Below are positions 11,654 to 32,089 of a stretch of DNA of 64,000 nucleotides, piece by piece. Every line of letters begins with the position of its first letter. Positions within the stretch are counted from its first letter, which is position 1. The notes under the pieces are model-generated. The model searched no databases. It was not told the origin of the DNA and worked only from the letters and a program-made list of their open reading frames with translations. The DNA is from Hwanghaeella grinnelliae. Lineage in GTDB: Bacteria; Pseudomonadota; Alphaproteobacteria; UBA8366; Aestuariispiraceae. Location of the stretch: assembly GCF_004005845.1 (NCBI RefSeq), contig NZ_SADE01000001.1, forward strand, positions 2,232,001 through 2,296,000, in the 5' to 3' direction. Made by a program: the position numbers and the translations under genes.

Positions 11654-13177
11654 CTAGACCGGTTCTGGCTGCAGCCGGGTCATCCAACCCGGTTCCTTGT
11701 GATGGCGCCGGGGCAGCGTCATTTTCAGCATGTCGCGGACATTCTGCGCCGCGTCCTCGCCGAATGTCTCCCCCACCATCTTTTGGTAATCGGCCCGATC
11801 GAAATAATCGATGAAGGCCTGGTCGCGGAAGGCCAGCACCTGTTCCGCCGCGAGCGCTTCCGTCGGCAACGGCATGCAATCGTAGGAATGTTGGGAATAG
11901 CCGATCCAACCGGGACCGCCGGGGTCCTCCGGCAGCGGCAGCCCGGCGGCCTTCGCCTGGATGTGGAGCGCCGATCCCGGATAGGCCATGGCACAATAGA
12001 AATTGGCCCATTCCGTATTCAGTTCGAGCGCGAGGTCCAGCGTTTCCCGCATGCTGTCCATCGTGTCGTCCGGCAGACCGAAAATGTAGTTTCCAAGAAC
12101 AGAAATGCCGTGATCCCGGGTTCTGGAAACCGCATCGGCGATGTCCACATTGCCGAACCGTCCTTTGGTGACGCCGTCGCGGACATGCTTGCTGCCCGAT
12201 TCAATCCCCAGACAGAGCCAATTAAAACCGGCTTTCTTCAGTTTTCCGAGAAGCTCCGGGTGCAGCGTGTCGATCCGCGCATAGGCCCAGAAATTGAGGC
12301 CGTAGTCGCGTTCGATCAACGCATCGCACAGGTCTGAAACATGGCGGCGATTGAGGACGAACATTTCATCCGGGATCTTGATATGACGGACACCGTATTT
12401 CGTCACCATCTCGTCGATCTGGGCCATCACCGTATCGACCGACCAATACCGCATGCCCGGCCCGCCAAAGGGGGCGTTGATGCAGCAGAAGGAGCATTTG
12501 AAACTGCAGCCCAAGCTGGTTTGCAGGGAGGCGTAGTTTTCCCGGTGCGCCAAGTCATTGAACGCGTGCCAGTTATGGGCCCGGTATTTGGTCATATCCA
12601 GAATATCGAGCGCCTGGCGCGGCAAGACCGCATCCAGATCGGCGACGTTGGATGACGGCGCGGCGGCGACGACGTCGCCATCCTGCCAACGGACCAGGCC
12701 CGGCACCGAGTCGAGGCTTCCGTGGCCATACACCAGATGGGCAAGAAGCGCATCCAGCGTCGCCGGTCCCTCGCCCGTGAAAACGAAATCCACCGGCTCT
12801 TCCCTTAAGGTCCGTTCCGGCAGGGCGGCGCAATGCGTTCCCATCATCGCGACGGGCCGGTCCGACTGCGCGCGGAAGGCCGTCGCTGATTTTCTGGCAC
12901 CCGGCATGCATTGAGTGGACGCACTCGGCTGCTGGCCATAGACGACGAACAGGGTAAGCGCCGCATCCAACTGCGCCGCCTTCGCCGCGGTCTGCTCATG
13001 CGTCAGGCCTTCCGCCTCGGCATCCAACAAGGCGACGGAAAAGCCTTTCATCCGCGCATGTTCCGCCAACAGCCCCGCCCAGACCGGCGGTTCGACAGCC
13101 GCCAGGCCCGCACCCAGATTCTGATAGATTTCCATCTTGCCCGGCGGATTAATCAGCAGCAGGTCGAGATCGGCCAT
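11654..13177 (-). CDS. Cobalamin-binding-type radical SAM protein
   Basis: The N-terminal 200 residues have the B12-binding layout seen in BchE/methyltransferase-type enzymes (LLLINPPGK at the start, FVFTGEGPATLDAL at about 131-144). The radical SAM domain follows with a canonical cluster motif GCSFKCSFC (Cys224, 228, 231) and GLPDDT further on. Such enzymes perform radical methylations, cyclisations or rearrangements. The 507-residue length is typical. The gene lies back-to-back with the sugar nucleotidyltransferase at 13414, at the edge of a glycosylation locus, so a modified sugar is a plausible substrate. It converges with hemN with a gap of only 7 bases and no terminator between. Confidence 0.88.
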   Translation of the reverse strand: MADLDLLLINPPGKMEIYQNLGAGLAAVEPPVWAGLLAEHARMKGFSVALLDAEAEGLTHEQTAAKAAQLDAALTLFVVYGQQPSASTQCMPGARKSATAFRAQSDRPVAMMGTHCAALPERTLREEPVDFVFTGEGPATLDALLAHLVYGHGSLDSVPGLVRWQDGDVVAAAPSSNVADLDAVLPRQALDILDMTKYRAHNWHAFNDLAHRENYASLQTSLGCSFKCSFCCINAPFGGPGMRYWSVDTVMAQIDEMVTKYGVRHIKIPDEMFVLNRRHVSDLCDALIERDYGLNFWAYARIDTLHPELLGKLKKAGFNWLCLGIESGSKHVRDGVTKGRFGNVDIADAVSRTRDHGISVLGNYIFGLPDDTMDSMRETLDLALELNTEWANFYCAMAYPGSALHIQAKAAGLPLPEDPGGPGWIGYSQHSYDCMPLPTEALAAEQVLAFRDQAFIDYFDRADYQKMVGETFGEDAAQNVRDMLKMTLPRRHHKEPGWMTRLQPEPV

Positions 13178-13342
13178 TCAGTCCTCACAAATCGATACAA
13201 CGTCCCGCCGAACAGCTTGCGAAAGCCATGCCGGTTCGCGGCGCGGTGCACATTTTCTATCCGGCCACTCTGTCCGCTTCGCCGTTCAGCGTCCAGTTGC
13301 CTGTCCGGCGGATTGGCAATTCCCGGCCTGTACGGTAACGCT

Positions 13343-13358
13343 TGGTCAGAAGTTTGCA
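13343..13358 (+). promoter_or_regulatory. Candidate sigma-54 (RpoN) promoter before the SpsF-like gene
   Basis: TGGTCAGAAGTTTGCA has the GG and GC elements exactly 10 bases apart and the TTGCA end of the -24/-12 consensus (TGGCAC-N5-TTGCA); the only core change is C to T after TGG. Transcription would begin near 13369, about 45 bases before the start at 13414. Confidence 0.5.
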
Positions 13359-13413
13359 TCGAAACCGGGCAGAAACGGCACGGAAGCGTCCTACAGACCA
13401 AACCGGGGCATAG

Positions 13414-14157
13414 ATGAAGACAGTTTGTATTTCCCAAGCCCGTATGGGGTCCAGCCGGCTGCCCGGCAAGGTATTGCTGCCGATCCATGGTCAGCCGATG
13501 CTGTTCTATCACCTGCGCCGGCTGCAGCAGGCCACAGAGGTCGATACGGTCGCCGTCGCCACCACGCATCTGATGGAAGACGACGCCATCGAACTGTTCA
13601 CCGTCAATCTTGGCGTTCCGTGCCATCGCGGCCCGGTCGAGGACGTCCTGACCCGGTTTTTCGATTGCGCGGTGCGGCACGATCCGGACATCGTCGTGCG
13701 GGTGACCGCGGACTGCCCCCTGATCGATCCGTCCCTGGTCGATTACGCCGTTCGGTCCCTGAAGGACGCCCCGCCGGAAATCGACTACATGAATCTCAGC
13801 TTGTCACATTTCCCGCGCGGGATGGACGTGGAGGTCATGCGTTTCAGCGCCCTGGCCCAAGCCTTTAAAGAGGCGACAGACCCCTATGCGCGCGAGCATG
13901 TGACCCCTTTCCTATACGGCCATCCGGAGCGGTTCGGCTGGCGGCAGTTGGAAACCGATACGCCTGCGGCGCAGTACCGGTTCTGCGTGGACGAACAGAG
14001 GGATCTGGACCTGATCGCCGAATTGCTTGACCGTCTGCCCGACGGTGACCTCAGCTTCACATGGCACGATGTCATCCGGCTGATGCAGGCAGACCCGACG
14101 CTTGAAAAGATCAACGGGGGCGTCGCGCAAAAGCCGTCCCAGCGCGCGGGCGGATGA
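13414..14157 (+). CDS. SpsF-like sugar cytidylyltransferase/glycosyltransferase-family protein
   Basis: The N-terminus ISQARMGSSRLPGKVL is the nucleotide-binding signature of the SpsF/KdsB-like cytidylyltransferase family, and VRVTADCPLIDPSL contains the metal-binding aspartate region. At 247 residues it matches stand-alone SpsF proteins, which occur in spore-coat and flagellin glycan clusters and are thought to make CMP-activated sugars. It is the first plus-strand gene of the glycosylation locus, behind a sigma-54-like promoter, and is followed after 46 bases by the PLP enzyme. Confidence 0.82.
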   Translation: MKTVCISQARMGSSRLPGKVLLPIHGQPMLFYHLRRLQQATEVDTVAVATTHLMEDDAIELFTVNLGVPCHRGPVEDVLTRFFDCAVRHDPDIVVRVTADCPLIDPSLVDYAVRSLKDAPPEIDYMNLSLSHFPRGMDVEVMRFSALAQAFKEATDPYAREHVTPFLYGHPERFGWRQLETDTPAAQYRFCVDEQRDLDLIAELLDRLPDGDLSFTWHDVIRLMQADPTLEKINGGVAQKPSQRAGG

Positions 14158-14203
14158 TCGGTTTGCCTGTTCGCGTATCTGTATCGTTTTGAAGGGAATG
14201 TCC

Positions 14204-15385
14204 GTGACCGAACCATTTGCACTGGCCGCAACCAGTTGGGATGCGCGGGAAATCGACGCCATGCAGGCCGTGATCGACAGCGGCATGTTCACTATGGGCG
14301 ACAAGGTGAAGGCGTTCGAAGCCGCGTTCGCCGCCCATTTCGGCATGGGCTACGCGATCATGACCAATTCCGGCTCTTCCGCGAACCTCGTTTCCACCGC
14401 GTCGCTTGCCTTTCGCAAACAAGGCCCGGCGCTGAAACCCGGCGATGAAGTGATCGTACCCGCGATTTCCTGGACAACGACCTATACGCCACTACAGCAA
14501 TACGGGCTGAAGACGCGCTTCGTCGACGTGGAACTGGACACCTTGAACGTCGACATGGCCAAGCTTGAAGACGCGATAACACCCAACACCAAAATGCTGA
14601 TGGCGGTCAGCATCCTGGGCAATCCGGCGGCGCTGGGACAGATGCGGAAACTGGCGGATGACCGCGGCCTGATCTTCATGGAAGACAATTGCGAAAGCCT
14701 GGACGCGGATATTGGCGGCAAGCCGACCGGCACATTCGGCGACATTTCGACAGCCAGTTTCTTCTTTTCGCACCACATCTCGACCATGGAAGGCGGGATG
14801 ATCATGACCAACGACCGGGAGCTGGCCCATCTTTGCCGGGCGCTTCGGGCGCATGGCTGGACCCGGGATTTGCCGGACGACAACGAATTGGTGACCCGCG
14901 GCGACGATGACTTGTTCGAGGCCTATCGCTTCATCCTGCCCGGCTACAATGTCCGTCCCCTGGAATTCAGTGGGGCCGTCGGGCTGGTGCAATTGGACAA
15001 ACTGCCTGAAATGACGGCCCAGCGCCGCCGGAATTGGGGGCTGTTCACCTCCCTTTTCGGCGAGGACGAACGCTTTATCATTCAACGGGAAAAGGAAGGC
15101 CGGTCATCCGCCTTCAGCTTCACACTGGTTCTGAACCCGGCGATGGATCTGGACCGAAAGGGCATTTTCGACGCGCTTTCCGCCAACAAGATCGGCTTCC
15201 GCATCATCACCGGGGGATGCTATCCCCGGCATGAAGTTATCGAGCATTTCGATTACACTTGCCACGACGACCTGCCGAACGCGAACCTTGCCCATGACCG
15301 GGGATTCTTTGTAGGCAATCATCCATTGGACCTGACCGATCAGATCCACCGCCTGCGCGACGTGCTGGACCGCGCCGCGCAATAG
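14204..15385 (+). CDS. DegT/DnrJ/EryC1-fold sugar enzyme of the lysine-less RfbH/ColD type (PMP-dependent 3-dehydrase-like)
   Basis: The protein has the DegT aminotransferase fold, with TNSGSSANLVSTASL near the N-terminus and the sugar-site MEDNCESL. At the position of the usual PLP-binding lysine it has FSHHISTMEGG, so His replaces Lys (about residue 190). That change is the hallmark of RfbH/E1 and ColD, which deoxygenate C-3 of a nucleotide 4-keto-6-deoxyhexose instead of transaminating it. I prefer the GTG start at 14204, 7 bases after GAAGGG, over ATG at 14198, which lies 1 base after it. The four-cysteine [2Fe-2S] motif of E1 is not evident, which favours a ColD-like mechanism. Confidence 0.82.
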   Translation: MTEPFALAATSWDAREIDAMQAVIDSGMFTMGDKVKAFEAAFAAHFGMGYAIMTNSGSSANLVSTASLAFRKQGPALKPGDEVIVPAISWTTTYTPLQQYGLKTRFVDVELDTLNVDMAKLEDAITPNTKMLMAVSILGNPAALGQMRKLADDRGLIFMEDNCESLDADIGGKPTGTFGDISTASFFFSHHISTMEGGMIMTNDRELAHLCRALRAHGWTRDLPDDNELVTRGDDDLFEAYRFILPGYNVRPLEFSGAVGLVQLDKLPEMTAQRRRNWGLFTSLFGEDERFIIQREKEGRSSAFSFTLVLNPAMDLDRKGIFDALSANKIGFRIITGGCYPRHEVIEHFDYTCHDDLPNANLAHDRGFFVGNHPLDLTDQIHRLRDVLDRAAQ

Positions 15386-15412
15386 GCCAAACCAACAAAG
15401 GCGGAACCACAG

Positions 15413-15442
15413 ATGGCGGATGGGCAGATGGCGGATGGACAA
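15413..15442 (+). repeat. Tandem 15-base duplication at the 5' end of the SDR gene
   Basis: Two 15-base units (15413-15427 and 15428-15442) differ at two positions and both encode MADGQ. The duplication provides two start codons in the same frame; only the first has a well-spaced Shine-Dalgarno. Confidence 0.85.
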
Positions 15443-16372
15443 AAAATCCTGGTGACGGGCGCTGCGGGATATCTGGGGTCCATCCTATGCGAGCATCTGC
15501 TGGACCAAGGCCATGAGGTCACGGCGGTCGACAGTTTCGCGCATGGCATCCCTTCCCTCGCCCATCTTTGCGCCAAGCCGGGTTTCGACCTGTTGCGAGC
15601 AGATGTGCGTGACAGCGGCACGATGAAGCCGCTCTACACCAAGCATGATGTCGTCATTCCGCTGGCCGCCCTGGTCGGCGCACCGCTTTGCGCGCGGGAG
15701 CCGGAGGCCGCCGTTTCCGTCAACCTCACTGCGGTCGAGACCATGCTGTCGGTATTGGGTCGGGACCAGCGTATACTGATGCCAATCACCAATTCCGGCT
15801 ATGGCATCGGGTCGAAAGACGGCTATTGCACCGAAGAAAGCCCGCTCAACCCGATCTCGCTCTATGGCCGAACCAAGGTCGACGCCGAGGCCGCCGTGCT
15901 GGCCCATGGCAATGCGATTTCGTTCCGCCTGGCGACCGTATTCGGCATGGCGCCGCGGATGCGTCTGGACCTGTTGGTCAACGATTTCGTCCACCGCGCC
16001 GTCACCGACCGTTCCATCGTGCTGTTCGAGGCGCATTTCCGCCGCAACTACATCCATGTGCGCGACGTGGCGCGCGCTTTCCTGCACGGATTGGAAAAAT
16101 TCGATACCTTGCGCGACAATGTCTTCAATGTCGGTCTGTCCGACGCAAACCTGACCAAGCGGGAGCTGTGCGAAAAGATCAAGGAACAGGTCCCCGCCCT
16201 GCAGATTCTGGAAGCGCCTGTTGGCGAGGACCCGGACAAACGCGACTACCTCGTCTCCAACGCAAAGATCGAAGCGACGGGCTATGTCCCGGCCTATAGT
16301 TTGGAAACGGGGATCGCGGAACTGATCATGGGATACCGGATGATCAACGCGAAACGGTTTACCAATGTCTGA
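15413..16372 (+). CDS. NAD-dependent sugar epimerase/dehydratase (extended SDR)
   Basis: An extended SDR of 319 residues has the Rossmann motif TGAAGYLGS and the catalytic region ITNSGYGIG, followed by YGRTK as the YxxxK motif. RRNYIHVRDVARAF is the C-terminal family signature. It probably epimerises, reduces or dehydrates a nucleotide sugar in the glycosylation pathway. The start at 15413 has an AAAGGCGG Shine-Dalgarno; an in-frame start at 15428 is created by a 15-base duplication at the very beginning of the gene. Confidence 0.87.
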   Translation: MADGQMADGQKILVTGAAGYLGSILCEHLLDQGHEVTAVDSFAHGIPSLAHLCAKPGFDLLRADVRDSGTMKPLYTKHDVVIPLAALVGAPLCAREPEAAVSVNLTAVETMLSVLGRDQRILMPITNSGYGIGSKDGYCTEESPLNPISLYGRTKVDAEAAVLAHGNAISFRLATVFGMAPRMRLDLLVNDFVHRAVTDRSIVLFEAHFRRNYIHVRDVARAFLHGLEKFDTLRDNVFNVGLSDANLTKRELCEKIKEQVPALQILEAPVGEDPDKRDYLVSNAKIEATGYVPAYSLETGIAELIMGYRMINAKRFTNV

Positions 16373-16405
16373 CGCATCGCTGCTGCAACAACGCCGGACG
16401 GTATC

Positions 16406-17140
16406 ATGACGGCGCTGCCGCCAGTTCTGATCCTCGCCGGCGGCAAGGCGACGCGGCTGGCCGACGTCCTGCCCGAATTGCCGAAAATACTGGCCCCGGT
16501 GGATGGAGTTCCCTTTCTGGATATCCTTTTGAACCGGCTGTTGCGGCAAGGTTTCACACAGGCCCATTTCTGCCTGGGCGTAATGGCGGAACAGGTCATC
16601 GACTATCTGATGCGCGCGGATATGGCCGATCTGCGGGTAACCGCCAGCATCGAAGACCGCCCCCTCGGCACCGGTGGAGCGATCCTGAATGCATTGTCCC
16701 CCACCCGCGGGCAACGATTCTTCGTCCTGAACGGCGACAGTTTGATCGATTACGATCCGGGCGCGATGCTGGCCCGGCACACCGAGATGCATAAGGAAGC
16801 CGGCGTCACCCTTCTGACGACCGCCGTTGCCGATGCCGCGCGTTTCGGAACGGTCGCGGTCGAAGACGGCCGTGTCACCCGGTTCGGGGAGAAGTCTTCC
16901 GATGGTCCGGGACGGATCAATGCCGGTGTCTATTTATTTGACCGGGGGATGTTCGACCCGCCGTACTTCGAAGATCGACGGTATGACGGATCCGACATTT
17001 CGCTGGAACGGCAGATGCTGCCACACTGGGTCACCCAGGGCCGCGTTGCCGATCATCCCGTCTCCGCGCCGCTTCTGGATATCGGCACACCGGAGGCACT
17101 GGCCGGCGCCGCCGGCTTTCTGGGGCCCATTTCCGGATGA
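16406..17140 (+). CDS. Sugar-1-phosphate nucleotidyltransferase, HddC-like
   Basis: The N-terminal LILAGGKATRLADVLPELPK is the nucleotidyltransferase signature with the catalytic Arg and Lys. LNGDSLIDYD carries the metal-binding aspartate and GRINAGVYLFDRGMF the sugar site. At 244 residues it resembles the short GDP-heptose-type guanylyltransferases (HddC) rather than long GlmU-type enzymes. Its natural partner, an HddA-like GHMP kinase, is encoded in the same locus at 30033. It overlaps the next glycosyltransferase gene by 4 bases. Specificity for a heptose or another sugar cannot be told. Confidence 0.82.
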   Translation: MTALPPVLILAGGKATRLADVLPELPKILAPVDGVPFLDILLNRLLRQGFTQAHFCLGVMAEQVIDYLMRADMADLRVTASIEDRPLGTGGAILNALSPTRGQRFFVLNGDSLIDYDPGAMLARHTEMHKEAGVTLLTTAVADAARFGTVAVEDGRVTRFGEKSSDGPGRINAGVYLFDRGMFDPPYFEDRRYDGSDISLERQMLPHWVTQGRVADHPVSAPLLDIGTPEALAGAAGFLGPISG

Positions 17141-19353
17141 ACCAATCCGCGCAGGATGCCTTTGAACGGGCCGATTATCAGGCTGCCGCCCGCCTTGCCG
17201 ACGACCCGATCCTGAAAGGCCTGGCGCTGGTGATGATCGGCAACCCATTGGATGGCCTGCCATTGCTATCGGGCACCGATCCCGCAGATCGGCAAGTCCC
17301 GGCGGGCACCGCCGCCATCCTGGCTTTCGGTCACTGGCTGGGCGGTAATACAGCTGAAGCACGGACGATATTGAGCGCCCGTCGCGAAGACCGCTTGTGC
17401 GCAGCATTTCTGGATCTGCTCAAGGACGAACCGATCCCCTGTCTGTTTCAGACCGCCCGCGCACCGCTTTTGTCCTCATGCAAACAAGTCGACGGCTTCG
17501 CCGTCACCACCGTCGGATCAAGCGGTCAGGATTGCGATATCGCATTGGACGATTGCGACAATAAAACGCTTGGAAACACCCTGGATGAAGCCGCGTTCCT
17601 GTTCGGGTTCGACTTCGCGGGCCCGCCACCCCTTCGTGCGCCCGGCAACGACACGCCTTACCTGATCCATCTGACCGATCCCGACGTGCATGTGCTGACA
17701 GGACTGCATCCGGTTCGGGACTATGACCGGGCCATCGCCGGCACATCAGGTCAGGCCGCGATGCTTCGGGCAATCACCGGAACACCGACGGCGAGCGGCC
17801 CGTTGTTCGGCGGTTTGTCGGCGTTTCATCCCTCGCTGGCCGATTTCGGGCCGGCCCCTGACAATGACAGGAAAACCGACCTGTTCTTTTCCGGTTCCTA
17901 CGGCACCCCAATCTATCACGAGAAACCGGCGCGCTTCTTCGCCGTCAGCCAAGTTCCCGAAGCCTATCGGATTGATCTGTTCGACAGTACGCGGCCCCTG
18001 TCCGATTATGCCGCCGGGTTGCAATCTGCCCGGTTTGCCTTGGTTTCGGTCCGGGCGCCCGGCAGCTTCAGCACGCGGGCCATGCAAGCCCTTGAATGTG
18101 GGGCCTTCGTCCTATGCGAAGCGGATTCCGGCGTTCTCGATTATTTCCCTGGTGAGGACTGGGGCGTTTTCACCTATCGCCCGGACCATATCACCGAGGA
18201 CATTGCGGCCCATTTGGCCCGCTACGACGACTATGCCGAGCGACTGCGCACCCGATGGGGCGCAATCCGGCAGCGTCTGTCCGCCTTGTCCCCCGGCTCC
18301 CCCGCGGCGGAAGAACGGTGGCTGAAATACGCGGCCTTCCAGTCGCTTCTGATCCGCCATGGCGGCAGACCTTCAAGACGGCCCCGCAGCGCCGCCGCGC
18401 CGCTCGACTGGTTTACGGTGCGGGGTCTTCCGGCGCCGGCGCATGAGGCACCGTGGACGACCCGTTCCGCCGGCTATACGGACCTGGCCGTGAAGGCCCG
18501 CGGGGCCACGCCCCCGGCCGAATGGTTGGCGGAGGATGGCGGGTTTACCCCGTTGCGCGGCCATCCTGCACGGATTCCTGCCCTGCAACGCGACCTTAGC
18601 GGCGCGTTTCTTCGCTTGGCCGAAACCTGGCAGGCCCGCGACCGTCCCGGATTCGAAGCCGCGGCGGAGGCCGTTTGGGAAAACCGAGAGGGGTACGCCG
18701 GGCAAAGTTTGGACGGCATGGCGATCCCGGATTACTGGCTCGGCGTTTTCCTGAACCGATTGGGCCTGCCGCTCGGCCGTCTCTACGAGGAAACCACCAC
18801 AACACGGATCAAAAATCGCACGGGCTCCGAAGCCTCCCTTCTGGTAGCCGCCTTGGGCATGGTCGGGGCCGAACGGGCCTGGGCCGGGGGCGACACCGCC
18901 GCAGCCGCGGAACGGGCCGGGCTGGCCGCAATGGTGGACCCGGCAAACCATGCGGCGACGGCGATGACCCTGCTCTGCGACCTGAAGCAAGAGCGCGCCT
19001 TGGAGTCCCAACCTGCACAGTTTGCGGACTATCCCTGGCACCTGCCGCGCGTCCTGGCATTGCTGGTGGAGAACACCGCAACGGACAGCCAATTGGCTGA
19101 GGGGAAATTGCACGCGGTCTATTTGCGCTTCGTTCAACGAATGCGCGACAGCCGTCCCCTCTTGTCGCCATCCAAAGTGCCCGCCGGGGCAGCCCGCTAT
19201 CTGGCGTGGAAGCTGGGTATTCCGGCCGCCAGTGACGGCGATAGTATCCTGGACAGGCTGCGGCAGGAGGAATTGCTGCTGACCGACGCGTTCATTGCGA
19301 CACGCTTGATCGCGGAACCGATCCTGGCCGCACTGAAAGCCCCGTCGGTCTAG
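17137..19353 (+). CDS. Large CgeB-like glycosyltransferase
   Basis: Residues about 235-400 form a CgeB/YkvP-type GT-B C-terminal domain: DLFFSGSYGTPIYHEK, then ALVSVRAPGSFSTRAMQALE and a nucleotide-sugar region containing CGAFVLCE. The N-terminal 230 residues and the C-terminal 320 residues are not recognisable; the C-terminal part is alanine-rich and helical, possibly repeat-like. The protein is cytosolic by appearance, with no signal or membrane segments. It is coupled by a 4-base overlap to the HddC-like gene, so it probably uses that nucleotide sugar. Its stop codon overlaps the stop of the convergent glycosyltransferase in a CTAG. Confidence 0.75.
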   Translation: MNQSAQDAFERADYQAAARLADDPILKGLALVMIGNPLDGLPLLSGTDPADRQVPAGTAAILAFGHWLGGNTAEARTILSARREDRLCAAFLDLLKDEPIPCLFQTARAPLLSSCKQVDGFAVTTVGSSGQDCDIALDDCDNKTLGNTLDEAAFLFGFDFAGPPPLRAPGNDTPYLIHLTDPDVHVLTGLHPVRDYDRAIAGTSGQAAMLRAITGTPTASGPLFGGLSAFHPSLADFGPAPDNDRKTDLFFSGSYGTPIYHEKPARFFAVSQVPEAYRIDLFDSTRPLSDYAAGLQSARFALVSVRAPGSFSTRAMQALECGAFVLCEADSGVLDYFPGEDWGVFTYRPDHITEDIAAHLARYDDYAERLRTRWGAIRQRLSALSPGSPAAEERWLKYAAFQSLLIRHGGRPSRRPRSAAAPLDWFTVRGLPAPAHEAPWTTRSAGYTDLAVKARGATPPAEWLAEDGGFTPLRGHPARIPALQRDLSGAFLRLAETWQARDRPGFEAAAEAVWENREGYAGQSLDGMAIPDYWLGVFLNRLGLPLGRLYEETTTTRIKNRTGSEASLLVAALGMVGAERAWAGGDTAAAAERAGLAAMVDPANHAATAMTLLCDLKQERALESQPAQFADYPWHLPRVLALLVENTATDSQLAEGKLHAVYLRFVQRMRDSRPLLSPSKVPAGAARYLAWKLGIPAASDGDSILDRLRQEELLLTDAFIATRLIAEPILAALKAPSV

Positions 19354-24440: not shown

Positions 24441-24487
24441 ACGGCACAACGCAAACTGCAATATTCGGGAAAGAAGAAAATCGACAC

Positions 24488-24925
24488 ATGGCAGAAACGC
24501 GCGAAAAAAAGATCCCCGTTTTCATTACGCATGCTTGGCGCTTTCACGATGATTGGAACCGCCTCGCTCAGATGATCGAGCAGTTTCCCGGCAGCCCCTG
24601 GGTCAACTACAGCGTCCCGTGGTACGATCCGGCGATCCGTGTTCATTCCGACGCAGGAAAAGAAAAACTGACCTCGATCCTGCTCGCTCAGATCATACCC
24701 GCGAAGTTTCTGATCTTTCTGTGCGGTCCCTATTCCGCGAAAAGCGCGCATATATGGTTCGACAAGGCCGTGGATATCGCGCTGGAGCGGAACAAGGAAA
24801 TCCTCCTTCTACCGGGATACGCGACCCAGGAGTATCTCGCGCCCGATCGCATCGCGGATGCGCGCCGCATTTCCTGGGACCTGGAGAAAGTGCATAAGGA
24901 AATCGTCGATAATTATGCGCTGTAG
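24488..24925 (+). CDS. TIR-like (MTH538/ThsB-type) domain protein
   Basis: The 145 residues form one domain: VFITHAW at the N-terminus, then NYSVPWYDPAI (about 40-50), LLAQIIPAKFLIFLCG, and KEILLLPGYA, ending with a WDLEKVHKEI helix. This order matches the MTH538 TIR-like family, which includes ThsB of the Thoeris antiphage system. No ThsA-like partner is encoded nearby. It lies 47 bases after the SDR gene on the same strand and within the glycosylation locus, so it may be a house-keeping or signalling variant or a displaced defence gene. Confidence 0.72.
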   Translation: MAETREKKIPVFITHAWRFHDDWNRLAQMIEQFPGSPWVNYSVPWYDPAIRVHSDAGKEKLTSILLAQIIPAKFLIFLCGPYSAKSAHIWFDKAVDIALERNKEILLLPGYATQEYLAPDRIADARRISWDLEKVHKEIVDNYAL

Positions 24926-24978
24926 GAAACACGGTTTCTTGGCGCGCCGGAAGCGTAGGCGGCGTCAGTTTAGCGCCT

Positions 24979-25006
24979 GCGGCCACGTCCTAGGGGCAGC
25001 TTTTTT
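24979..25006 (+). terminator. Candidate terminator between the TIR-like gene and maf
   Basis: GCGGCC and GGGCAGC can pair with one mismatch and are followed by TTTTTT at 25001-25006. It lies 53 bases after the TIR-like stop and abuts the stop of the convergent maf gene. The stem is short, so the call is tentative. Confidence 0.4.
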
Positions 25007-27679
25007 CTAGAGCCCTTCCCATTGTGCATTTGGAAATTCAACGCGGCAGAAATCTTTGAGTTTCTTTTTCTCGTGCTCGAAATCGCCGGACAGCGCGAAG
25101 TCCTCGTTACCGCATCTAAAAGAATATTCGAGATACAGGTCTATGTACTCTTCCAGCCCGCCGCGATCTTTCCTGTAACACTGCAGGCGGTCGTGTTTGT
25201 CATGGGACATGGACATCAAATGCGCGGGCAGCATCTTCGTTTGAAAATTCTTACGGGAGAAGAACGTCTGCGAGCATTGCCCGCATTTCAACGACGGCAT
25301 CACCTGCATCGGCGTGCGGATGACGTTATCGACTTTCAACTCTGTCGCCCCGCAATACGGACAAGAGTCCCAATACCCCGGAATCGAGGTCTTGTTGACG
25401 AAATCGAAGAGTGGTTCAAGTTCCTCCGAGTCTTGCGGAAATTGGCAAAGATACCAGCCGATCGTTTCCTCGACGGTCCAACAAGGGTCTGCCAGAAGCG
25501 GCAGCATCGCGCCCAAGTTCCGCAGAACGCCGTCCGTATCGAAGTCGAAAAGAGCTTCCCACCAACATCTGTACAAGCCATACAACTCATTCGTCGAATG
25601 CTCGGAATCGAATGTCATAAGGCCGGTACCGGCGATCGAACGTTCCGCTTCTAGCCGAAAACGGGCCATCGTTCTGATCAGGGATTCACACAGGAAACGA
25701 AGGCCTTTTTTCAGAAAAGAGCCTACGCTATCAGCCGACTGCGTAACGAAATATTGGCGTAGGATATGAAAAGAGTACCTGCATTCCTCTCGAATGAGGG
25801 TCGCCGCGCCGAGGTCTTTGGACGACACGGTATTTATCCGCTCGAATGACTCTTCAAATGCGTCGACGACGAGGCGGTCCATATCGGCCAATGGGATATT
25901 AGGGTATAATTTTTCGGTCTTTGCTTGGAATATTGACACCAAGTCGAGAACCAGTTTTTCCGACTCCTGAAGCATGGCGGCGGCATTGTCGATGAAAGCC
26001 GCCAACTCGGTTTCACCGAGTGTGACGTAGTTCAACCCGGCCAAGGGTGACAAGCCGCTCTCGCGCGCCAATTCGACGTCTCGGCAATGTTCCCTCACCA
26101 GGGCGAGGAAGCGTGCTGGATCGAGTACAGGGTCTGCTTTGGCAATAGCCGCCCCTTCTCCGCAATTGTAAACAAGCGTTTCCGACTCATTTTGCAACAG
26201 CAGACGATTGGTCAGCGAAAGCATGAAAGCCCAATTGTCGGTCGTTTGAACATTGCGGCCATCGTTCCCGGGAATGGAGCGCGAGTCCGGCGGCTTGATG
26301 AACCCCGGATTCTTTGTGGTCCAGGCCTTGTGATTATAGGCGACATTCTCGACGTGATGCGCGCCGTCCGCACTATAGGCGTAGTCGACCCCGGCAAGAA
26401 AAATAGCCGGGGGATTCAATGTCAGGCATAGGTTAAGGGCGCTGTTTACAGCCGTGCCGCCACTTTCCGGAAAAGGCTCCAGAATTGGTCTCAACGCATG
26501 AAGAACCATATCCCCGGTACGATTGAAAAAATAGACATCGTCGAACATGTCGCTGACCTGTCTATCGACGGACACAGATGCGACCAACGTCGTCTGCTTG
26601 AACGCATCGGGATTTTCGACCGTGGACAGTTGATCCACGACCATCGGCGTGTTCTCGAGCTCAAAATGCAGATCCGGATACAATCCGGCCTCGGCGAGAG
26701 GCTTCAGCGACGTTCCGGCACCTACCAAAATCACGTCTTCCCGAATTTCCGCAAGAGCTGGAATGAATTGCGTAAGCGACGGACCGCTGCCGGCAACAAC
26801 GACGGGCTTTGAAGATTTTTCATTCGTCTTCGACGGCGCGATGAAAGAATAGCGCGGTCGCTCCTCGTCAGTCTGGCCATGCGCCTGGTGCACGGCCTTG
26901 CGAAGATTATCGCAGATATTCCTTAGATGAATGGATTCGTCTTCCGCCCAACCGTTGTATCCCTTTATGGAATTGAACTCTGAGACGATGCTCTTGTAGA
27001 GCGTCAGTTCCCGGTCCAAGTCGTAGTGCGGATAGAAATAACTTCCCGGAAGCAACCCAATGTCTTTCTCGCGCAAATATGTGGAAAGCGCGATCGAGAG
27101 CATTCTCTGATCGTCCGACATAAGGAATTTCAAGGTGGCGCGCTTTTCTCGCAACTTTGATGCGACCCGCACCCAATCCGTAAACCCGAGGGACGCCTGT
27201 AGGAAATCTATGTAATAGTCGCAAATAACAAAATTCTGACAATTGAGCTTATCAATCAAAAACTCCACATGCCGCCCCGTGCCCAAGCCGACGATGACGG
27301 CAAAGCCATTTCGGGTTTCGGTGGAAAGCGCATGCTCCCCAGTATAGTTCGCCCCTTCCAAGTTTAGCAGTTGGTTTTTTAGGAAGTGTCCAGAGCGGGC
27401 CTTGCCTAAGGCCTTCTTGGAATCGAACGGGATCAAGTAAATAGGCTCTGCCAAATTTACCCTGGTCGGGTTCTGAAAATAGTCGCGGAGTTGTTTTGAT
27501 ATGACGGTCTCGGCATCGGGATGATAATGCGGCCGTCCTTCTATGAACATGTTGTGCCGGGTACCGTCGGGGTCCACCGGCAAGATCTCCACGCCGCACG
27601 GCTCTTTCCGGCGGAGAAATTCATAATGCTCCGGACTGAGATACGGTTTGAGCGCTTCAAGATTATCGTCATACAGCAT
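25007..27679 (-). CDS. Motility-associated factor (Maf, DUF115) glycosyltransferase with C-terminal zinc ribbon
   Basis: Maf proteins glycosylate flagellin, usually with nonulosonic acids. This 890-residue member has an N-terminal domain (IVGLGTGRHVEFLID near 130), the DUF115 core with VVVAGSGPSL (about 293-302), PDLHFELENTP and GGTAVNSALNL, and then a long helical region. Near the C-terminus a four-cysteine ribbon is visible: CPYC at 773-776 and CGQC at 799-802. Ordinary Maf proteins do not have this. It is convergent with the TIR-like gene and monocistronic by appearance, with base use visibly less GC-rich than the core genes. Confidence 0.85.
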   Translation of the reverse strand: MLYDDNLEALKPYLSPEHYEFLRRKEPCGVEILPVDPDGTRHNMFIEGRPHYHPDAETVISKQLRDYFQNPTRVNLAEPIYLIPFDSKKALGKARSGHFLKNQLLNLEGANYTGEHALSTETRNGFAVIVGLGTGRHVEFLIDKLNCQNFVICDYYIDFLQASLGFTDWVRVASKLREKRATLKFLMSDDQRMLSIALSTYLREKDIGLLPGSYFYPHYDLDRELTLYKSIVSEFNSIKGYNGWAEDESIHLRNICDNLRKAVHQAHGQTDEERPRYSFIAPSKTNEKSSKPVVVAGSGPSLTQFIPALAEIREDVILVGAGTSLKPLAEAGLYPDLHFELENTPMVVDQLSTVENPDAFKQTTLVASVSVDRQVSDMFDDVYFFNRTGDMVLHALRPILEPFPESGGTAVNSALNLCLTLNPPAIFLAGVDYAYSADGAHHVENVAYNHKAWTTKNPGFIKPPDSRSIPGNDGRNVQTTDNWAFMLSLTNRLLLQNESETLVYNCGEGAAIAKADPVLDPARFLALVREHCRDVELARESGLSPLAGLNYVTLGETELAAFIDNAAAMLQESEKLVLDLVSIFQAKTEKLYPNIPLADMDRLVVDAFEESFERINTVSSKDLGAATLIREECRYSFHILRQYFVTQSADSVGSFLKKGLRFLCESLIRTMARFRLEAERSIAGTGLMTFDSEHSTNELYGLYRCWWEALFDFDTDGVLRNLGAMLPLLADPCWTVEETIGWYLCQFPQDSEELEPLFDFVNKTSIPGYWDSCPYCGATELKVDNVIRTPMQVMPSLKCGQCSQTFFSRKNFQTKMLPAHLMSMSHDKHDRLQCYRKDRGGLEEYIDLYLEYSFRCGNEDFALSGDFEHEKKKLKDFCRVEFPNAQWEGL

Positions 27680-27862
27680 TATTATTGTCCGTCGGGTAAG
27701 GCTGCGGAAAACAGAAGTATTTCAAATCTTCCTGTAACGCAGTGCACGCCCCTCCATCACGGCCCCCCGTTATGTCACCCATCCTCCGTGGACGTTGCAG
27801 CCGCGAGCAATCAGCAGAATGCGCCTGAAACGGCGTTGCGTGCCCGACGCCGAACCCCATCC

Positions 27863-28918
27863 TCAAAACGGCCCCTTGAAAACCGGGTCCTGCTGCATGT
27901 CCTCGGCCATGGCGGCGAAGGGCGGTATGGACGCCTCCGGCACGGCAAGGCGCATGGCGGCCACGCAGATGGTCACGGCATCGGGGTAGAAGGCCTTTTC
28001 CAGCGACGGTGTCGTCGGGCATGGCGTCGGTGCGAAGCCGATCCGCGCCACCTGGACGCCGGGCACGCGCTCGGCAACAGCGGCGACGATCTCAGCCGAT
28101 GCGCCGCAAGCGGTCCAGGCGGCATCCGCGACGATAAGCCGGCCGGTTTTCTCCACGGATCGGGTGATCAAATCCATGTCCAGCGGCGCAAGCCAGATCG
28201 GATCGATCACTTCGGCTGAAACATTCGCCTGTTCCAGCAAGGCCGCCGCCTTCAAGGCGTCATGCAGCATGTTCGATATCCCGACGATGGTGACATCACC
28301 GCCTTCCCGGCAGACCCGCCCCTTGCCGATGGTCGAGGCGCCGGCGGAGATATCCACCGGGCCTTCACGGTTGTAGAGCAGGCGGTGTTCGACGAAGACG
28401 ACCGGGTTGTTGTCGGCAACAGAGGCCATCATGCAGGTCATCGCATCCTGCGGCGTGGCGGGGGCGACAACGTGCAGCCCCGGAATATGCATGAAAAGGC
28501 TATGCAGGCCCTGGCTGTGCTGCGCCCCCTGCCCCCAGGATTTCCCGATGATGCCACGCGCCACCATCGGCACCGTCACCTGGCCGCCGAACATGTAATG
28601 CGCCTTGGCGGCGATGTTCACCAATTGGTTCATGCAGAGCAGCAGGAAGTCCATCCGGATATGGGTGTGGATCGGGCGCATTCCGGCCATGGCCGCCCCA
28701 ATGGCAACGCCGGTCATCGCATCTTCCGACAACGGGGTTCCGAAACACCGCTTTGCGCCGAATTCTTCCGCCAGCCCCAAAGTCGTCCCCTGAATGCCCA
28801 GGTGGTCGTCCACATCCAAACCGAACAGGAAGACGTCGTCGTCCGCCCGCATCGCACGCGCGATGCCCAGGCGCACGGCCTCCTTATAGGCGGTCATGTC
28901 AGGCATAGGCGCCAACAT
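27863..28918 (-). CDS. Thiamine-diphosphate 2-oxoacid dehydrogenase-type E1 beta subunit
   Basis: The protein has the E1 beta/transketolase pyrimidine-domain layout: FGTPLSEDAMTGVAIGAAM near residue 58, GQGAQHSQGLHSLFMHIPG mid-protein, and the C-terminal domain with a PCPTTPSLEKAFYP segment. It pairs with the adjacent E1 alpha gene, which it overlaps by about 20 bases from the start at 28918 (GGGTGA upstream); starts at 28906 and 28897 are also possible. No E2 or E3 gene is present, so a classic dehydrogenase complex is unlikely to be encoded here. Within a glycan locus, transfer of a two-carbon unit to a sugar is a possible role. Confidence 0.85.
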   Translation of the reverse strand: MLAPMPDMTAYKEAVRLGIARAMRADDDVFLFGLDVDDHLGIQGTTLGLAEEFGAKRCFGTPLSEDAMTGVAIGAAMAGMRPIHTHIRMDFLLLCMNQLVNIAAKAHYMFGGQVTVPMVARGIIGKSWGQGAQHSQGLHSLFMHIPGLHVVAPATPQDAMTCMMASVADNNPVVFVEHRLLYNREGPVDISAGASTIGKGRVCREGGDVTIVGISNMLHDALKAAALLEQANVSAEVIDPIWLAPLDMDLITRSVEKTGRLIVADAAWTACGASAEIVAAVAERVPGVQVARIGFAPTPCPTTPSLEKAFYPDAVTICVAAMRLAVPEASIPPFAAMAEDMQQDPVFKGPF

Positions 28919-29861
28919 TCAGTTCACCCGGCTGCGGGAAGGGGCTGGATTCGGCATAGGCGACCGCCTCGGCGATAATAGCCTCAACCTCCTCATCTAT
29001 GGCTGACCGCATATCGGGGGCCAAGGCGTCGCCCAGGCGCGCTACCTCGTCCTTGCCCCGCCAGTGCGCCGCTTCGCCGGCATCGCGATAGTCCTGATCG
29101 TGGTCATCGTTCGGCCCGACATGTTGAAGCCATCGATAGGTCGGGCATTCAGCGAAAATCGGCCCTTCTGACGCCCCCGTGCGGATCGCCTCGATCCGCT
29201 CCGCCGCCCAGGCCCGCAATACGATTGTGTCCATATCCTCGAAGCGGTGGGTCTCCACACCATATCCCTCAACCCGTCGGCAGAGATCCGGTTGAGCCCA
29301 ACGATTGGACAGTGGCGAATGAATCGCCAGGCCGTTGTTCTCACAGACGAACAATATCGGTAGGCCATGCAGCGCCGCGAAGTTGAGGCTTTCGGGGAAA
29401 ACCCCCTCCTCAGTCGCGCCATCGCCCAGGAAACAGACCACGACGCGGTCTTCGCCCCGCATCTTGATCGCCATCGCATAACCGACGGCCACGGGAATAG
29501 TGGTTCCGACCACCGCTGAGGCGCCCAAAATACCGTTATCCATGTCGACCAGATGCATGGATCCCGCGATTCCGTGGGCGACCCCGTCCCGCTTGCCATA
29601 AAGTTCGGCCATCATGCCGGACGGCGACCCGCCTTTGGCGAGAAATGCCGCATGCCCGCGATAGGTCATCGACACCACGTCCTGGCGCCGCAGCGGATCG
29701 CAGAAAGCGACGGAAATCGCCTCCTGCCCGATGGAGAGGTGGACCGGGCTCTTGATCTTGTCACTGGGATAAATCTCAGCCACGACTTCTTCCATCCGGC
29801 GGATCAGTCGGATCTTCCGATAAAGCCTTGAAATCAGATCATTGTCGAAATTTTTGCTCAT
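28899..29861 (-). CDS. Thiamine-diphosphate 2-oxoacid dehydrogenase-type E1 alpha subunit
   Basis: The thiamine-diphosphate/Mg motif reads GDGATEEGVFPESLNFA and ends at CENN, as in E1 alpha subunits of the acetoin/pyruvate dehydrogenase type. HLSIGQEAISVAF and YRGHAAFLAKG precede it. With the start at 29861 (MSKNFDNDL) the protein has 320 residues, the usual length; the frame stays open upstream to 30167 but that part is not E1-like. It is the first gene of the alpha-beta pair. The partner acyl carrier is missing from the neighbourhood. Confidence 0.86.
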   Translation of the reverse strand: MSKNFDNDLISRLYRKIRLIRRMEEVVAEIYPSDKIKSPVHLSIGQEAISVAFCDPLRRQDVVSMTYRGHAAFLAKGGSPSGMMAELYGKRDGVAHGIAGSMHLVDMDNGILGASAVVGTTIPVAVGYAMAIKMRGEDRVVVCFLGDGATEEGVFPESLNFAALHGLPILFVCENNGLAIHSPLSNRWAQPDLCRRVEGYGVETHRFEDMDTIVLRAWAAERIEAIRTGASEGPIFAECPTYRWLQHVGPNDDHDQDYRDAGEAAHWRGKDEVARLGDALAPDMRSAIDEEVEAIIAEAVAYAESSPFPQPGELNVGAYA

Positions 29862-30032
29862 GGGTTTTCGTCTACAGGGATTCAGCCGATGGTGGCCAGC
29901 AGGCATGGCCACCCTCTCAGCAAACCTTTGCCACGGAACCGAAGGCACGGATATAGTGAAACACGTTGAAACGCGACGGGCAGAAGCCCGATCCACCCAA
30001 ATGATTGGACATCTCAGAAGAGATCGCCGCAG

Positions 30033-31052
30033 ATGATTATTGCCCGAACCCCCTATCGCGTCTCGTTTTTCGGCGGCGGAACGGATTATCCCGCGTGGTA
30101 CCGAGAGCACGGTGGCGCGGTCATCGGCACCGCGATAGACAAATACTGTCATGTCACGATCCGCCACCTACCGCCGTTCTTCGAACACAAACATCGCATC
30201 GTCTATTCCAAGGTCGAGACGGTCGACGCTATTGAGCAGATTGAGCATCCCAGCGTCCGCGCGGTCCTGCAGTATCTGGACATCCACAAGGGCGTCGAAA
30301 TCCATCACGACGGCGATTTGCCCGCCAGGACCGGCCTTGGGTCCAGTTCGTCCTTCACCTGCGGCATGTACAACGCCGCCTCCGCCCTTCTGGGCCGGAT
30401 GCACAAACCGGCCCGACTTGCCGATGAAGTCACCCATATCGAACAGGATCTGATCGGCGAGAATGTCGGCGACCAGGACCAAATATGGGCGGCATACGGC
30501 GGAACGAACTATGTCGACTTCAAGCCGGATGGATCGCGGACGGTTACGCCGCTGGTGATATCGGCAGAGCGCCGCCGCGCCCTGGAAAGCCACCTAGTCC
30601 TGGTCTTTACCGGTTTCGCGCGCTATGCGGACCAATACGCCAAGAACCAGATCGACAATATTCCAAAGCGTCAGGCCCAGTTGAAAAACATCCAACAAAT
30701 GGCCGATGAAGCCTTCAACATCCTGATTTCCCCGAACCGGGATATTGCCGAATTCGGCCGGCTGATGGGAGAATCCTGGCGCAACAAACGCGAAATCCAT
30801 GAAACGGTTTCGACCGACAGGGTCGACGAGATCTATCAAGCCGGCATCGACGCCGGGGCCTATGGCGGCAAACTGTTGGGCGCCGGCGGCGGAGGCTTCA
30901 TGCTTTTCGTCGTGCCCCCCGAACGCAAGCCAACCTTGCTGAGCGCACTCGCAGACCTCGTTCCCGTCGAGTTCAAAATCGGGGCGCCCGGCAGCACCAT
31001 TGTCCTGTACGAACCGAACGGGTGGGATACAGCCGTCAACGCCGCCCCCTAA
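30033..31052 (+). CDS. GHMP-family sugar kinase, HddA-like
   Basis: The N-terminal RTPYRVSFFGGGTDYPAWY and the phosphate loop LPARTGLGSSSS (about 96-107) are those of D-glycero-D-manno-heptose-7-phosphate kinase (HddA) and related GHMP kinases. The C-terminal GGKLLGAGGGGFMLF is the third GHMP motif. At 339 residues it has the family length. With the HddC-like nucleotidyltransferase at 16406 it could prepare an activated heptose-type sugar. GmhA and GmhB homologues are not in the window. It is followed 23 bases later by a NagZ-like gene. Confidence 0.86.
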   Translation: MIIARTPYRVSFFGGGTDYPAWYREHGGAVIGTAIDKYCHVTIRHLPPFFEHKHRIVYSKVETVDAIEQIEHPSVRAVLQYLDIHKGVEIHHDGDLPARTGLGSSSSFTCGMYNAASALLGRMHKPARLADEVTHIEQDLIGENVGDQDQIWAAYGGTNYVDFKPDGSRTVTPLVISAERRRALESHLVLVFTGFARYADQYAKNQIDNIPKRQAQLKNIQQMADEAFNILISPNRDIAEFGRLMGESWRNKREIHETVSTDRVDEIYQAGIDAGAYGGKLLGAGGGGFMLFVVPPERKPTLLSALADLVPVEFKIGAPGSTIVLYEPNGWDTAVNAAP

Positions 31053-31075
31053 CCGGCACGGAGCAATAATCAGAG

Positions 31076-32089
31076 ATGCCTGCAAGTAATGTGATTTATG
31101 GTCTGGAAGAAACCATGCCGACCGCGCAGGAACGCGCTTTCTTCCGCGACATGGATCCTTTCGGCTACATTCTGTTCGCACGGAACATCAAGGATGCCGA
31201 ACAGGTACGGGCCTTGACCAAAAGCCTGCGCGAGATCAGCGGGCGCGATGACCTACCGATCTTGATCGATCAGGAAGGCGGCCGGGTCCAACGCCTGCGC
31301 GGGCCGCATTTCCGGGAAGCCCCGCCCGCGGGCGCAATCGCGGAACTGGCCCTGATTGACGAGAAACAAGGGCTGCGCGCTGCCTATCTTCATGCGCTTG
31401 GGATTGGGGTGCAATTGCGGGACCTCGGCATCACCGTCGACTGTGCGCCCTGCCTGGACCTTCGGTTCGAGGGGGCAAGCGACGTGATCGGCGACCGATC
31501 ATACGGCAATGACCCGGAATTGGTCGGAAAACTGGGCCGCGCGGCGATCGACGGCTTCCGGCAAGCCGGCGTCATGCCGGTCATCAAACATCTGCCCGGG
31601 CATGGCCGGGCCTTGGTCGATAGCCATCATGGTCTGCCCGTGATCGATACCGGCCTGGAACTCTTGGCGAAGACTGATTTCAGGCCATTCGCCAATTGCC
31701 GGCAAAAGACCTGGGGAATGACGGCGCATCTTGTCCTCACCGCTGTCGATCCCGACCGTCCGATCACGCAATCGGCAACCGGAATTCAGGAAATCATTCG
31801 GGACAGGATCGGTTTTGACGGTCCGTTGATGACCGACGATCTTTCGATGAATGCCCTGACAGGTGAAATGGCCTATCGCGCGGATAAGGCCGTCGCGGCC
31901 GGGTGCGACCTGCTTCTACATTGCAACGGCAAATTCGACGAGATGGAATCCGTGGCCGAAGCGGTCGTCCCGCTTTCAGGCAAGGCCCTTGAACGGATCA
32001 AGGGCGCGCCTATTCCAAAACAGGCGGCACATCCGGGACTTACCGAGATCGAGGCTGAGTTGTCGGACCTGCTTGCACGGACGCAATAG
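31076..32089 (+). CDS. nagZ: Glycoside hydrolase family 3, beta-N-acetylhexosaminidase (NagZ-like)
   Basis: The family-3 motif KHLPGHGRALVDSHHGLP (about residues 170-187) holds the catalytic His-Asp dyad of NagZ, and MTDDLSMNAL carries the nucleophile aspartate. PILIDQEGGRVQRL lies near residue 62. NagZ releases N-acetylglucosamine from anhydromuropeptides in the cytosol during peptidoglycan recycling; no signal peptide is visible. At 337 residues it is the standard length. Its place directly after the GHMP kinase may be chance, or it may be the boundary between the glycan locus and core chromosome. Confidence 0.9.
   Translation: MPASNVIYGLEETMPTAQERAFFRDMDPFGYILFARNIKDAEQVRALTKSLREISGRDDLPILIDQEGGRVQRLRGPHFREAPPAGAIAELALIDEKQGLRAAYLHALGIGVQLRDLGITVDCAPCLDLRFEGASDVIGDRSYGNDPELVGKLGRAAIDGFRQAGVMPVIKHLPGHGRALVDSHHGLPVIDTGLELLAKTDFRPFANCRQKTWGMTAHLVLTAVDPDRPITQSATGIQEIIRDRIGFDGPLMTDDLSMNALTGEMAYRADKAVAAGCDLLLHCNGKFDEMESVAEAVVPLSGKALERIKGAPIPKQAAHPGLTEIEAELSDLLARTQ

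What the first reader, a model, noticed from the sequence alone, without database searches (positions are those of the whole stretch)
11654..32089. A glycosylation locus combining Maf, two cobalamin-type radical SAM proteins, an RfbH/ColD-like enzyme and an E1 alpha/beta pair
Seen: SpsF-like, RfbH/ColD-like, SDR, HddC-like and HddA-like sugar genes, two CgeB-like glycosyltransferases, Maf, two B12-type radical SAM proteins, a TIR-like protein and orphan E1 subunits within 20 kb. Known: Maf glycosylates flagellin; RfbH/ColD remove the 3-hydroxyl of nucleotide sugars; thiamine enzymes such as YerE add two-carbon branches to 3,6-dideoxy sugars. Inference: the locus makes an unusual deoxy, possibly branched or radical-modified, sugar and attaches it to flagellin. 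I know of no described pathway with this combination.
Basis: partly seen in the sequence, partly recalled or inferred. Interest (0 to 1): 0.72.

Follow-up and report, generated by a model that had tools for sequence, protein, structure and literature searches.

The report
Gene set for a branched heptose
This stretch of DNA carries a widely shared but apparently undescribed set of enzymes that probably turns a seven-carbon sugar into a deoxygenated sugar with a two-carbon side branch for decorating the cell surface, in some marine bacteria probably the flagellum.

Summary
The genes described are present. E1 alpha, E1 beta, a ColD-type 3-dehydratase, a Cj1427-like (GDP-heptose 4-dehydrogenase) SDR, HddC- and HddA-like genes and often the first B12-radical SAM gene form one compact cluster in many Proteobacteria and in bins labelled Myxococcota and Acidobacteriota. 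In 289 alphaproteobacterial genomes, all 18 with this kind of E1 alpha also carry the ColD-like gene, which only 19 have (p = 1e-27). Related enzymes were combined in vitro by others to make GDP-3-deoxy-4-keto-heptose, and E1-type pairs add two-carbon branches to ketosugars in antibiotic pathways. I infer a GDP-3-deoxy-4-C-acetyl-heptose; no chemistry was shown.

Maf, rSAM2, SDR2, the TIR-like gene and SpsF are not part of the conserved set; a block with low-GC rSAM2 and Maf splits the cluster here. The flagellin link is not supported in this genome, whose flagellins lie 0.44 and 1.25 Mb away, two of them beside another Maf. It is supported in seven marine gammaproteobacteria, where the cluster lies 7-17 kb from flagellin genes.

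The parts
11654..13177 (-). rSAM1: B12-binding radical SAM protein, optional member of the conserved cluster (28 of 41 full-flank loci)
   Evidence: Pfam Radical_SAM and B12-binding; relatives at 42-62% identity in homologous clusters; model (pLDDT 78) resembles TsrM and AprD4
13414..14157 (+). SpsF-like cytidylyltransferase family protein; adjacent but not conserved with the cluster
   Evidence: CTP_transf_3; no match in the homologous loci searched
14198..15385 (+). ColD-type PLP-dependent sugar 3-dehydratase (core gene)
   Evidence: PDB ColD E = 2e-116; His193 aligns with the ColD residue that is Asn in the variant chain 3b8x; invariant His-His in 15 homologues
15413..16372 (+). SDR like the Campylobacter GDP-heptose C4-dehydrogenase (core gene)
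   Evidence: PDB 6vo6/6vo8 E = 7e-105; present in 41 of 41 full-flank loci
16406..17140 (+). HddC-like sugar-1-phosphate guanylyltransferase family protein (core gene)
   Evidence: HddC NCBIfam 101 bits, below its 300 cut-off; conserved in the cluster
17137..19353 (+). CgeB-like glycosyltransferase, local
   Evidence: Glyco_trans_1_2; rarely found near homologous clusters
19350..20291 (-). putative glycosyltransferase without Pfam match; relatives in Marinomonas flagellar regions
   Evidence: 35-41% identity near the cluster in five Marinomonas genomes
20629..23583 (+). rSAM2: long B12-type radical SAM protein, low GC (0.528), not part of the conserved core
   Evidence: Pfam; relatives in 1 other of 398 genomes and in Marinomonas ostreistagni; GC
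23580..24440 (+). SDR2, short-chain dehydrogenase; possible ketoreductase
   Evidence: adh_short; not conserved with the core
24488..24925 (+). TIR/ThsB-like protein, role unknown
   Evidence: ThsB_TIR 22.1 bits against cut-off 21.2
25007..27679 (-). Maf family protein, one of seven in the genome, low GC (0.523)
   Evidence: PF20157 and PF01973; GC
27863..28918 (-). E1 beta, ThDP-dependent carboligase subunit (core gene)
   Evidence: Transket_pyr and Transketolase_C; Glu and His motifs aligned with human PDH E1 beta; directly 5' of ColD in 52 of 55 homologous loci
28899..29861 (-). E1 alpha, ThDP-dependent carboligase subunit (core gene); overlaps E1 beta by 20 bases
   Evidence: E1_dh; GDG...NN ThDP motif invariant; one branch of its own in the tree
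30033..31052 (+). HddA-like GHMP sugar kinase (core gene)
   Evidence: HddA NCBIfam 142 bits, below cut-off 600; PDB heptose kinases E = 4e-34 to 3e-36; conserved in the cluster

Best explanation
The conserved part of the locus (ColD-type dehydratase, Cj1427-type dehydrogenase, HddC, HddA, E1 alpha and beta, optional rSAM1) is a pathway for a GDP-activated, 3-deoxygenated heptose with a two-carbon branch at C4. Proposed steps: a heptose phosphate is phosphorylated by HddA and activated by HddC to GDP-heptose; the SDR oxidises C4; the ColD-like enzyme removes the 3-hydroxyl with PLP and glutamate, giving GDP-3-deoxy-4-keto-heptose; the E1 pair decarboxylates pyruvate and adds the acetyl carbanion to the C4 ketone; a reductase may reduce the branch; rSAM1 may further methylate or deoxygenate. 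The sugar then goes to a surface glycan, which in marine gammaproteobacteria is probably on flagellin and in this genome is unknown. Shown here: gene content, conservation, tree position and key residues. Inferred: every reaction and the product.
For: The cluster is conserved in alpha- and gammaproteobacteria and in bins labelled Myxococcales and Bryobacterales. In 41 full-flank loci the SDR is present in 41, E1 beta 31, E1 alpha 30, HddA 30, rSAM1 28, HddC 25. E1 alpha of this kind occurs only in genomes with the ColD-like gene, 18 of 18, p = 1e-27, with a sharp gap to other E1s (E < 1e-104 against 1e-78). The cluster E1 alphas lie on one branch, SH-aLRT 96. E1 beta is directly 5' of ColD in 52 of 55 loci that have both. 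The ThDP motif and the Glu/His regions are kept, while the loop around the PDH phosphorylation serine is replaced by YRWxxHVGP. Campylobacter Cj1427 plus a C3-dehydratase make GDP-D-glycero-3-deoxy-4-keto-heptose in vitro (PMC10680097). E1-type pairs are assigned to pyruvate-derived two-carbon branches in paulomycin, avilamycin, aldgamycin and related sugars (PMC4802897, PMC4425429, PMC12247030).
Against: No enzyme was assayed. Some loci have ColD, SDR and rSAM1 but no such E1: of eight E1-less loci tested, seven genomes had none elsewhere, so branching is an optional module. HddA and HddC matches are below the equivalog cut-offs, so the heptose scaffold is not certain. A GmhA-like gene was found below its cut-off (172 against 209 bits) and GmhB only weakly. 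The assignment of PDB 6vo6/6vo8 to Cj1427 is from memory. In this genome E1 and ColD are 12 kb apart on opposite strands.
Confidence: 0.6

Rival explanations
1. The same enzymes act on a hexose: a GDP-mannose-derived 3-deoxy-4-keto sugar is branched by E1, much as in yersiniose, and HddA/HddC serve another sugar.
For: ColD itself acts on a GDP-hexose (established knowledge); HddA and HddC matches are below equivalog cut-offs; HddC was not found in 16 of 41 full-flank loci.
Against: No 4,6-dehydratase is among the conserved genes; the SDR is far closer to the Campylobacter heptose enzyme structure than to any other solved enzyme; HddA is in 30 of 41 loci.
Confidence: 0.2
2. The E1 pair is an ordinary 2-oxoacid dehydrogenase E1 that supplies acetyl or acyl groups, and does not act on the sugar.
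For: E1 alpha and beta score highest against PDH E1 families.
Against: It occurs only with the ColD-like gene, mostly directly beside it; it forms one branch apart from other E1s; the PDH loop is replaced; no E2 or E3 gene was recognised among the genes scanned in the locus.
Confidence: 0.12
3. The full 20 kb set works as one flagellin glycosylation pathway with this Maf as the transferase.
For: Maf lies between the two halves of the core; in seven gammaproteobacteria the cluster is close to flagellin genes, with a Maf beside it in Marinomonas and Pseudoalteromonas.
Against: Maf, rSAM2, SDR2, TIR and SpsF do not travel with the core in Alphaproteobacteria; the genome has seven Mafs, one next to two of its flagellins; rSAM2 and Maf have low GC, which points to a separate origin.
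Confidence: 0.15

Closest known systems
Campylobacter jejuni GDP-heptose capsule pathways (Cj1427 C4-dehydrogenase, HS:5 C3-dehydratase, HddA, HddC)
   Same: Same enzyme families and the same proposed intermediate, GDP-3-deoxy-4-keto-heptose (PMC10680097)
   Different: In the published work the two key enzymes come from different serotypes and were combined in vitro; a C4-reductase ends the pathway, and no E1 pair or radical SAM protein is among the enzymes listed there
AviB1/AviB2, Pau11/Pau12 (Plm8/Plm9) and related alpha-keto acid dehydrogenase-type sugar carboligases
   Same: E1 alpha/beta pair in a deoxysugar cluster, proposed to add a pyruvate-derived two-carbon branch at a ketone (PMC4425429, PMC4802897, PMC12247030)
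   Different: Those are antibiotic pathways; here the pair sits with GDP-heptose genes in Gram-negative surface-glycan loci. Direct sequence relationship not tested
YerE and yersiniose A biosynthesis
   Same: A 3-deoxy-4-keto sugar is branched at C4 with a two-carbon unit
   Different: YerE is a single ThDP-dependent flavoprotein (PMC4753412) acting on a CDP-dideoxyhexose
ColD (GDP-colitose pathway)
   Same: Same PLP dehydratase type with His in place of the catalytic Lys
   Different: ColD acts on GDP-4-keto-6-deoxymannose, made by a GDP-mannose 4,6-dehydratase; here the neighbour is a C4-dehydrogenase type SDR

Membership tests
ColD-type PLP 3-dehydratase | DegT family with ColD as nearest solved relative | tested here: met
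   393 bits, E = 2e-116 over residues 8-391
ColD-type PLP 3-dehydratase | His in place of the PLP-binding Lys | tested here: met
   His193 aligns with the ColD His that is Asn in 3b8x; His193-His194 invariant in 15 homologues
ColD-type PLP 3-dehydratase | Removes the 3-hydroxyl of a GDP-4-keto sugar | not testable with these tools
   needs an assay
RfbH equivalog (NF011936) | Score over the curated cut-off | tested here: not met
   252 bits against 423
GDP-heptose C4-dehydrogenase (Cj1427) | Close sequence relationship to the solved Campylobacter enzyme | tested here: met
   E = 7e-105 over the whole chain, next PDB match 6e-20; identity of the PDB entry as Cj1427 is from memory
GDP-heptose C4-dehydrogenase (Cj1427) | Oxidises GDP-heptose at C4 | not testable with these tools
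   needs an assay
E1-type two-component sugar carboligase (AviB1/AviB2 kind) | E1 alpha/beta pair with intact ThDP motif inside a ketosugar cluster | tested here: met
E1-type two-component sugar carboligase (AviB1/AviB2 kind) | Groups by sequence with AviB1, Pau11 and relatives | not tested
   their sequences were not at hand
E1-type two-component sugar carboligase (AviB1/AviB2 kind) | Pyruvate-dependent C-C bond formation on a ketone | not testable with these tools
   needs an assay
Pyruvate dehydrogenase E1 alpha equivalog (TIGR03182) | Score over the curated cut-off | tested here: not met
   260.8 bits against 393.85
HddA heptose kinase (NF049969) and HddC (NF049965) | Score over the curated cut-off | tested here: not met
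   142 against 600 and 101 against 300 bits
Maf flagellin glycosyltransferase | Maf N-terminal and MptE-like domains | tested here: met
Maf flagellin glycosyltransferase | Encoded near flagellin genes (usual, not obligatory) | tested here: not met
   nearest flagellin about 0.44 Mb away on the same contig

The most novel reading that the evidence does not exclude
A widespread, undescribed nine-carbon branched sugar, GDP-3-deoxy-4-C-acetyl- or 4-C-(1-hydroxyethyl)-heptose, sometimes further modified by a B12-radical SAM enzyme, is made in Gram-negative bacteria by a two-component E1 carboligase. A wider set of such E1 pairs with the loop YRWxEH(C/V)GP lies beside other sugar genes and makes further branched sugars.
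Probability: 0.5. Interest if true: 0.75.

Novelty: new variant of a known kind. Interest (0 to 1): 0.62.

Why it matters
If right, it predicts a specific new surface sugar in many bacteria, including Azospirillum and marine genera that can be grown, and gives a Gram-negative pathway in which a pyruvate dehydrogenase-like pair, rather than a YerE-type enzyme, builds a carbon branch. Every step can be tested with purified enzymes, and the key intermediate has already been made enzymatically by others. It would also turn a set of genes usually annotated as aminotransferase, pyruvate dehydrogenase and epimerase into one pathway.

Tried and rejected
RfbH type: rejected by score and by the closer match to ColD. 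All 13 genes as one unit: rejected by the co-occurrence counts. rSAM2 as a member: a close long relative in only 1 other of 398 genomes, in a region with a glycosyltransferase and several radical SAM genes but without the core genes; one relative near the core in Marinomonas ostreistagni. Bradyrhizose as the product: its reported cluster includes a dTDP-glucose 4,6-dehydratase gene (PMC4743980), a different route. Structure of the second glycosyltransferase-like protein: model too poor (mean pLDDT 55.5), not searched; the first alignment for it held a spurious row and was remade. Mobile-element ends around the low-GC block: only weak short repeats found. Streptomyces plasmid E1 pairs as antibiotic sugar carboligases: the one annotated region showed no nucleotide-sugar genes in the stretch read, so no conclusion. 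The careful tree did not finish; the quick one is quoted.
Full report
The finding. The window is bases 2232001-2296000 of contig 1 of a 5.3 Mb genome. Three details change. The PLP enzyme is of ColD type, not RfbH type. The SDR at 15413 is specifically alike to a solved enzyme, PDB 6vo6/6vo8, which from memory is the Campylobacter GDP-heptose C4-dehydrogenase Cj1427. The second CgeB-like protein is not recognised by Pfam.

The ColD-like protein was sought in 385 alphaproteobacterial genomes: 31 matched at E <= 1e-60, with a close group at 56-66% identity in many families and none in the few same-family genomes shown in that table; the whole order was not sampled for this gene. Neighbourhoods of 20 hits showed a compact set: HddA, HddC, rSAM1, the Cj1427-like SDR, ColD, E1 beta, E1 alpha. 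A scan of about 85,000 species genomes returned 80 loci, which is the cap, in Azospirillum, Magnetospirillum, Marinomonas, Alteromonas, Pseudoalteromonas and others, with metagenome bins labelled Myxococcales and Bryobacterales (bin labels may be wrong). In the 41 loci with full flanks, the SDR is in 41, E1 beta 31, E1 alpha 30, HddA 30, rSAM1 28, HddC 25, an Fcl-like SDR 12. SpsF, SDR2 and TIR-like genes are in none at the thresholds used.

E1 belongs to the sugar genes. In 289 genomes, E1 alpha homologues fall into a close group (E < 1e-104) and the rest (1e-78 and weaker). All 18 genomes of the close group also have the ColD-like gene, out of 19 that do (Fisher p = 1e-27; the count of 19 was read from the table for genomes taken to be in both samples, and related genomes are not independent). 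E1 beta lies directly 5' of ColD on the same strand in 52 of 55 loci that have both. A quick tree of 94 sequences puts the 63 cluster E1 alphas on one branch, SH-aLRT 96. Of eight genomes with an E1-less locus, seven have no such E1 elsewhere and one does. So E1 is an optional module on a ColD plus SDR core, and so is rSAM1: of 41 loci, 20 have both, 11 E1 only, 8 rSAM1 only, 2 neither.

Mechanism. The ThDP motif GDG...NN is invariant in E1 alpha, and E1 beta aligns with human PDH E1 beta through the active-site Glu and His regions. The loop that in human E1 alpha reads YRYHGHSMSDP reads YRWLQHVGPND here. The ColD-like enzyme has the His in place of Lys. Published work made GDP-D-glycero-3-deoxy-4-keto-heptose with Cj1427 plus a Campylobacter C3-dehydratase that needs PLP and glutamate (PMC10680097). 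Published work assigns E1-type pairs to two-carbon branching of ketosugars in paulomycin, avilamycin and others, with in vitro ketone coupling shown for the kibdelomycin pair, and contrasts this with Gram-negative yersiniose, which uses the single enzyme YerE. Put together, the product is inferred to be a GDP-3-deoxy-4-C-acetyl-heptose. This is inference from families and gene order, not shown.

rSAM1. The model (mean pLDDT 78) matches TsrM, a B12 methyltransferase, and AprD4, a radical 1,2-diol dehydratase of an aminosugar, about equally; AprD4 is the best solved relative by sequence. Methylation and deoxygenation are both open.

What does not belong. rSAM2 (GC 0.528) and Maf (0.523) are low against 0.59-0.64 for the core genes. 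Between the ColD half and the E1 half of this genome's cluster lie CgeB1, CgeB2, rSAM2, SDR2, TIR and Maf, so the set is split and partly inverted here; insertion is the simplest reading but no element ends were found. A close rSAM2 relative occurred in 1 other of 398 genomes.

Acceptor. The window's genome has seven Maf-type genes, three flagellins at about 993, 994 and 1807 kb of the contig and three NeuB genes. Two flagellins have a Maf beside them. The cluster lies about 1.25 and 0.44 Mb from the flagellins, so a flagellin link is not supported here. In five Marinomonas genomes, Pseudoalteromonas peptidolytica and Alteromonas hispanica the cluster and flagellin genes are on the same contig (contig lengths agree), with the nearest flagellin 7-17 kb from the ColD-like gene (from the coordinates). 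In Marinomonas balearica the order is flagellin, FliD, FliS, Maf, NeuB, an unassigned gene, acetyltransferase, SDR, AMP-binding, LuxE, LuxC, E1 alpha, E1 beta, ColD, SDR. The window's E1 alpha groups with the gammaproteobacterial ones, support 83, which is modest.

Precursor supply. A GmhA-like gene is present below the family's cut-off and GmhB is only weakly matched, so the heptose supply is plausible but not settled.

Novelty. I found no paper in the library searched describing this combination; subscription journals are mostly absent from it. Each enzyme type is known; the combination and its spread appear new.

Noticed in passing
L195-L202, L208, L243, L244; neighbourhoods L254-L264: Other E1 alpha proteins, most with the loop YRWxEH(C/V)GP, lie beside other nucleotide-sugar genes (HddA, HddC, Fcl-like, DegT-type, SDRs), suggesting more E1-type sugar carboligases.
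   Followed up: partly
L089:904-4588: Azospirillum argentinense plasmid p5 has a split transketolase pair and a cobalamin-dependent protein about 9-13 kb from the ColD-like gene, perhaps another branching system.
   Followed up: no
L245:14838-18353: The Marinomonas balearica flagellar region carries AMP-binding, LuxE and LuxC genes between Maf and E1 alpha, an acid-reducing set of unknown role.
   Followed up: no
L268:11111-18418 and L269:7604-13448: The only other sampled genome with a close long rSAM2 relative has several B12-radical SAM proteins and a glycosyltransferase in the same region.
   Followed up: partly
window 24488-24925: A small TIR/ThsB-like protein follows SDR2, barely over the Pfam cut-off; its role in a glycan locus is unexplained.
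   Followed up: no
window 20629-23583, C-terminal third: The C-terminal part of rSAM2 appears by eye to hold about four degenerate repeats around a 'FYAVP' motif, with no Pfam match.
   Followed up: no
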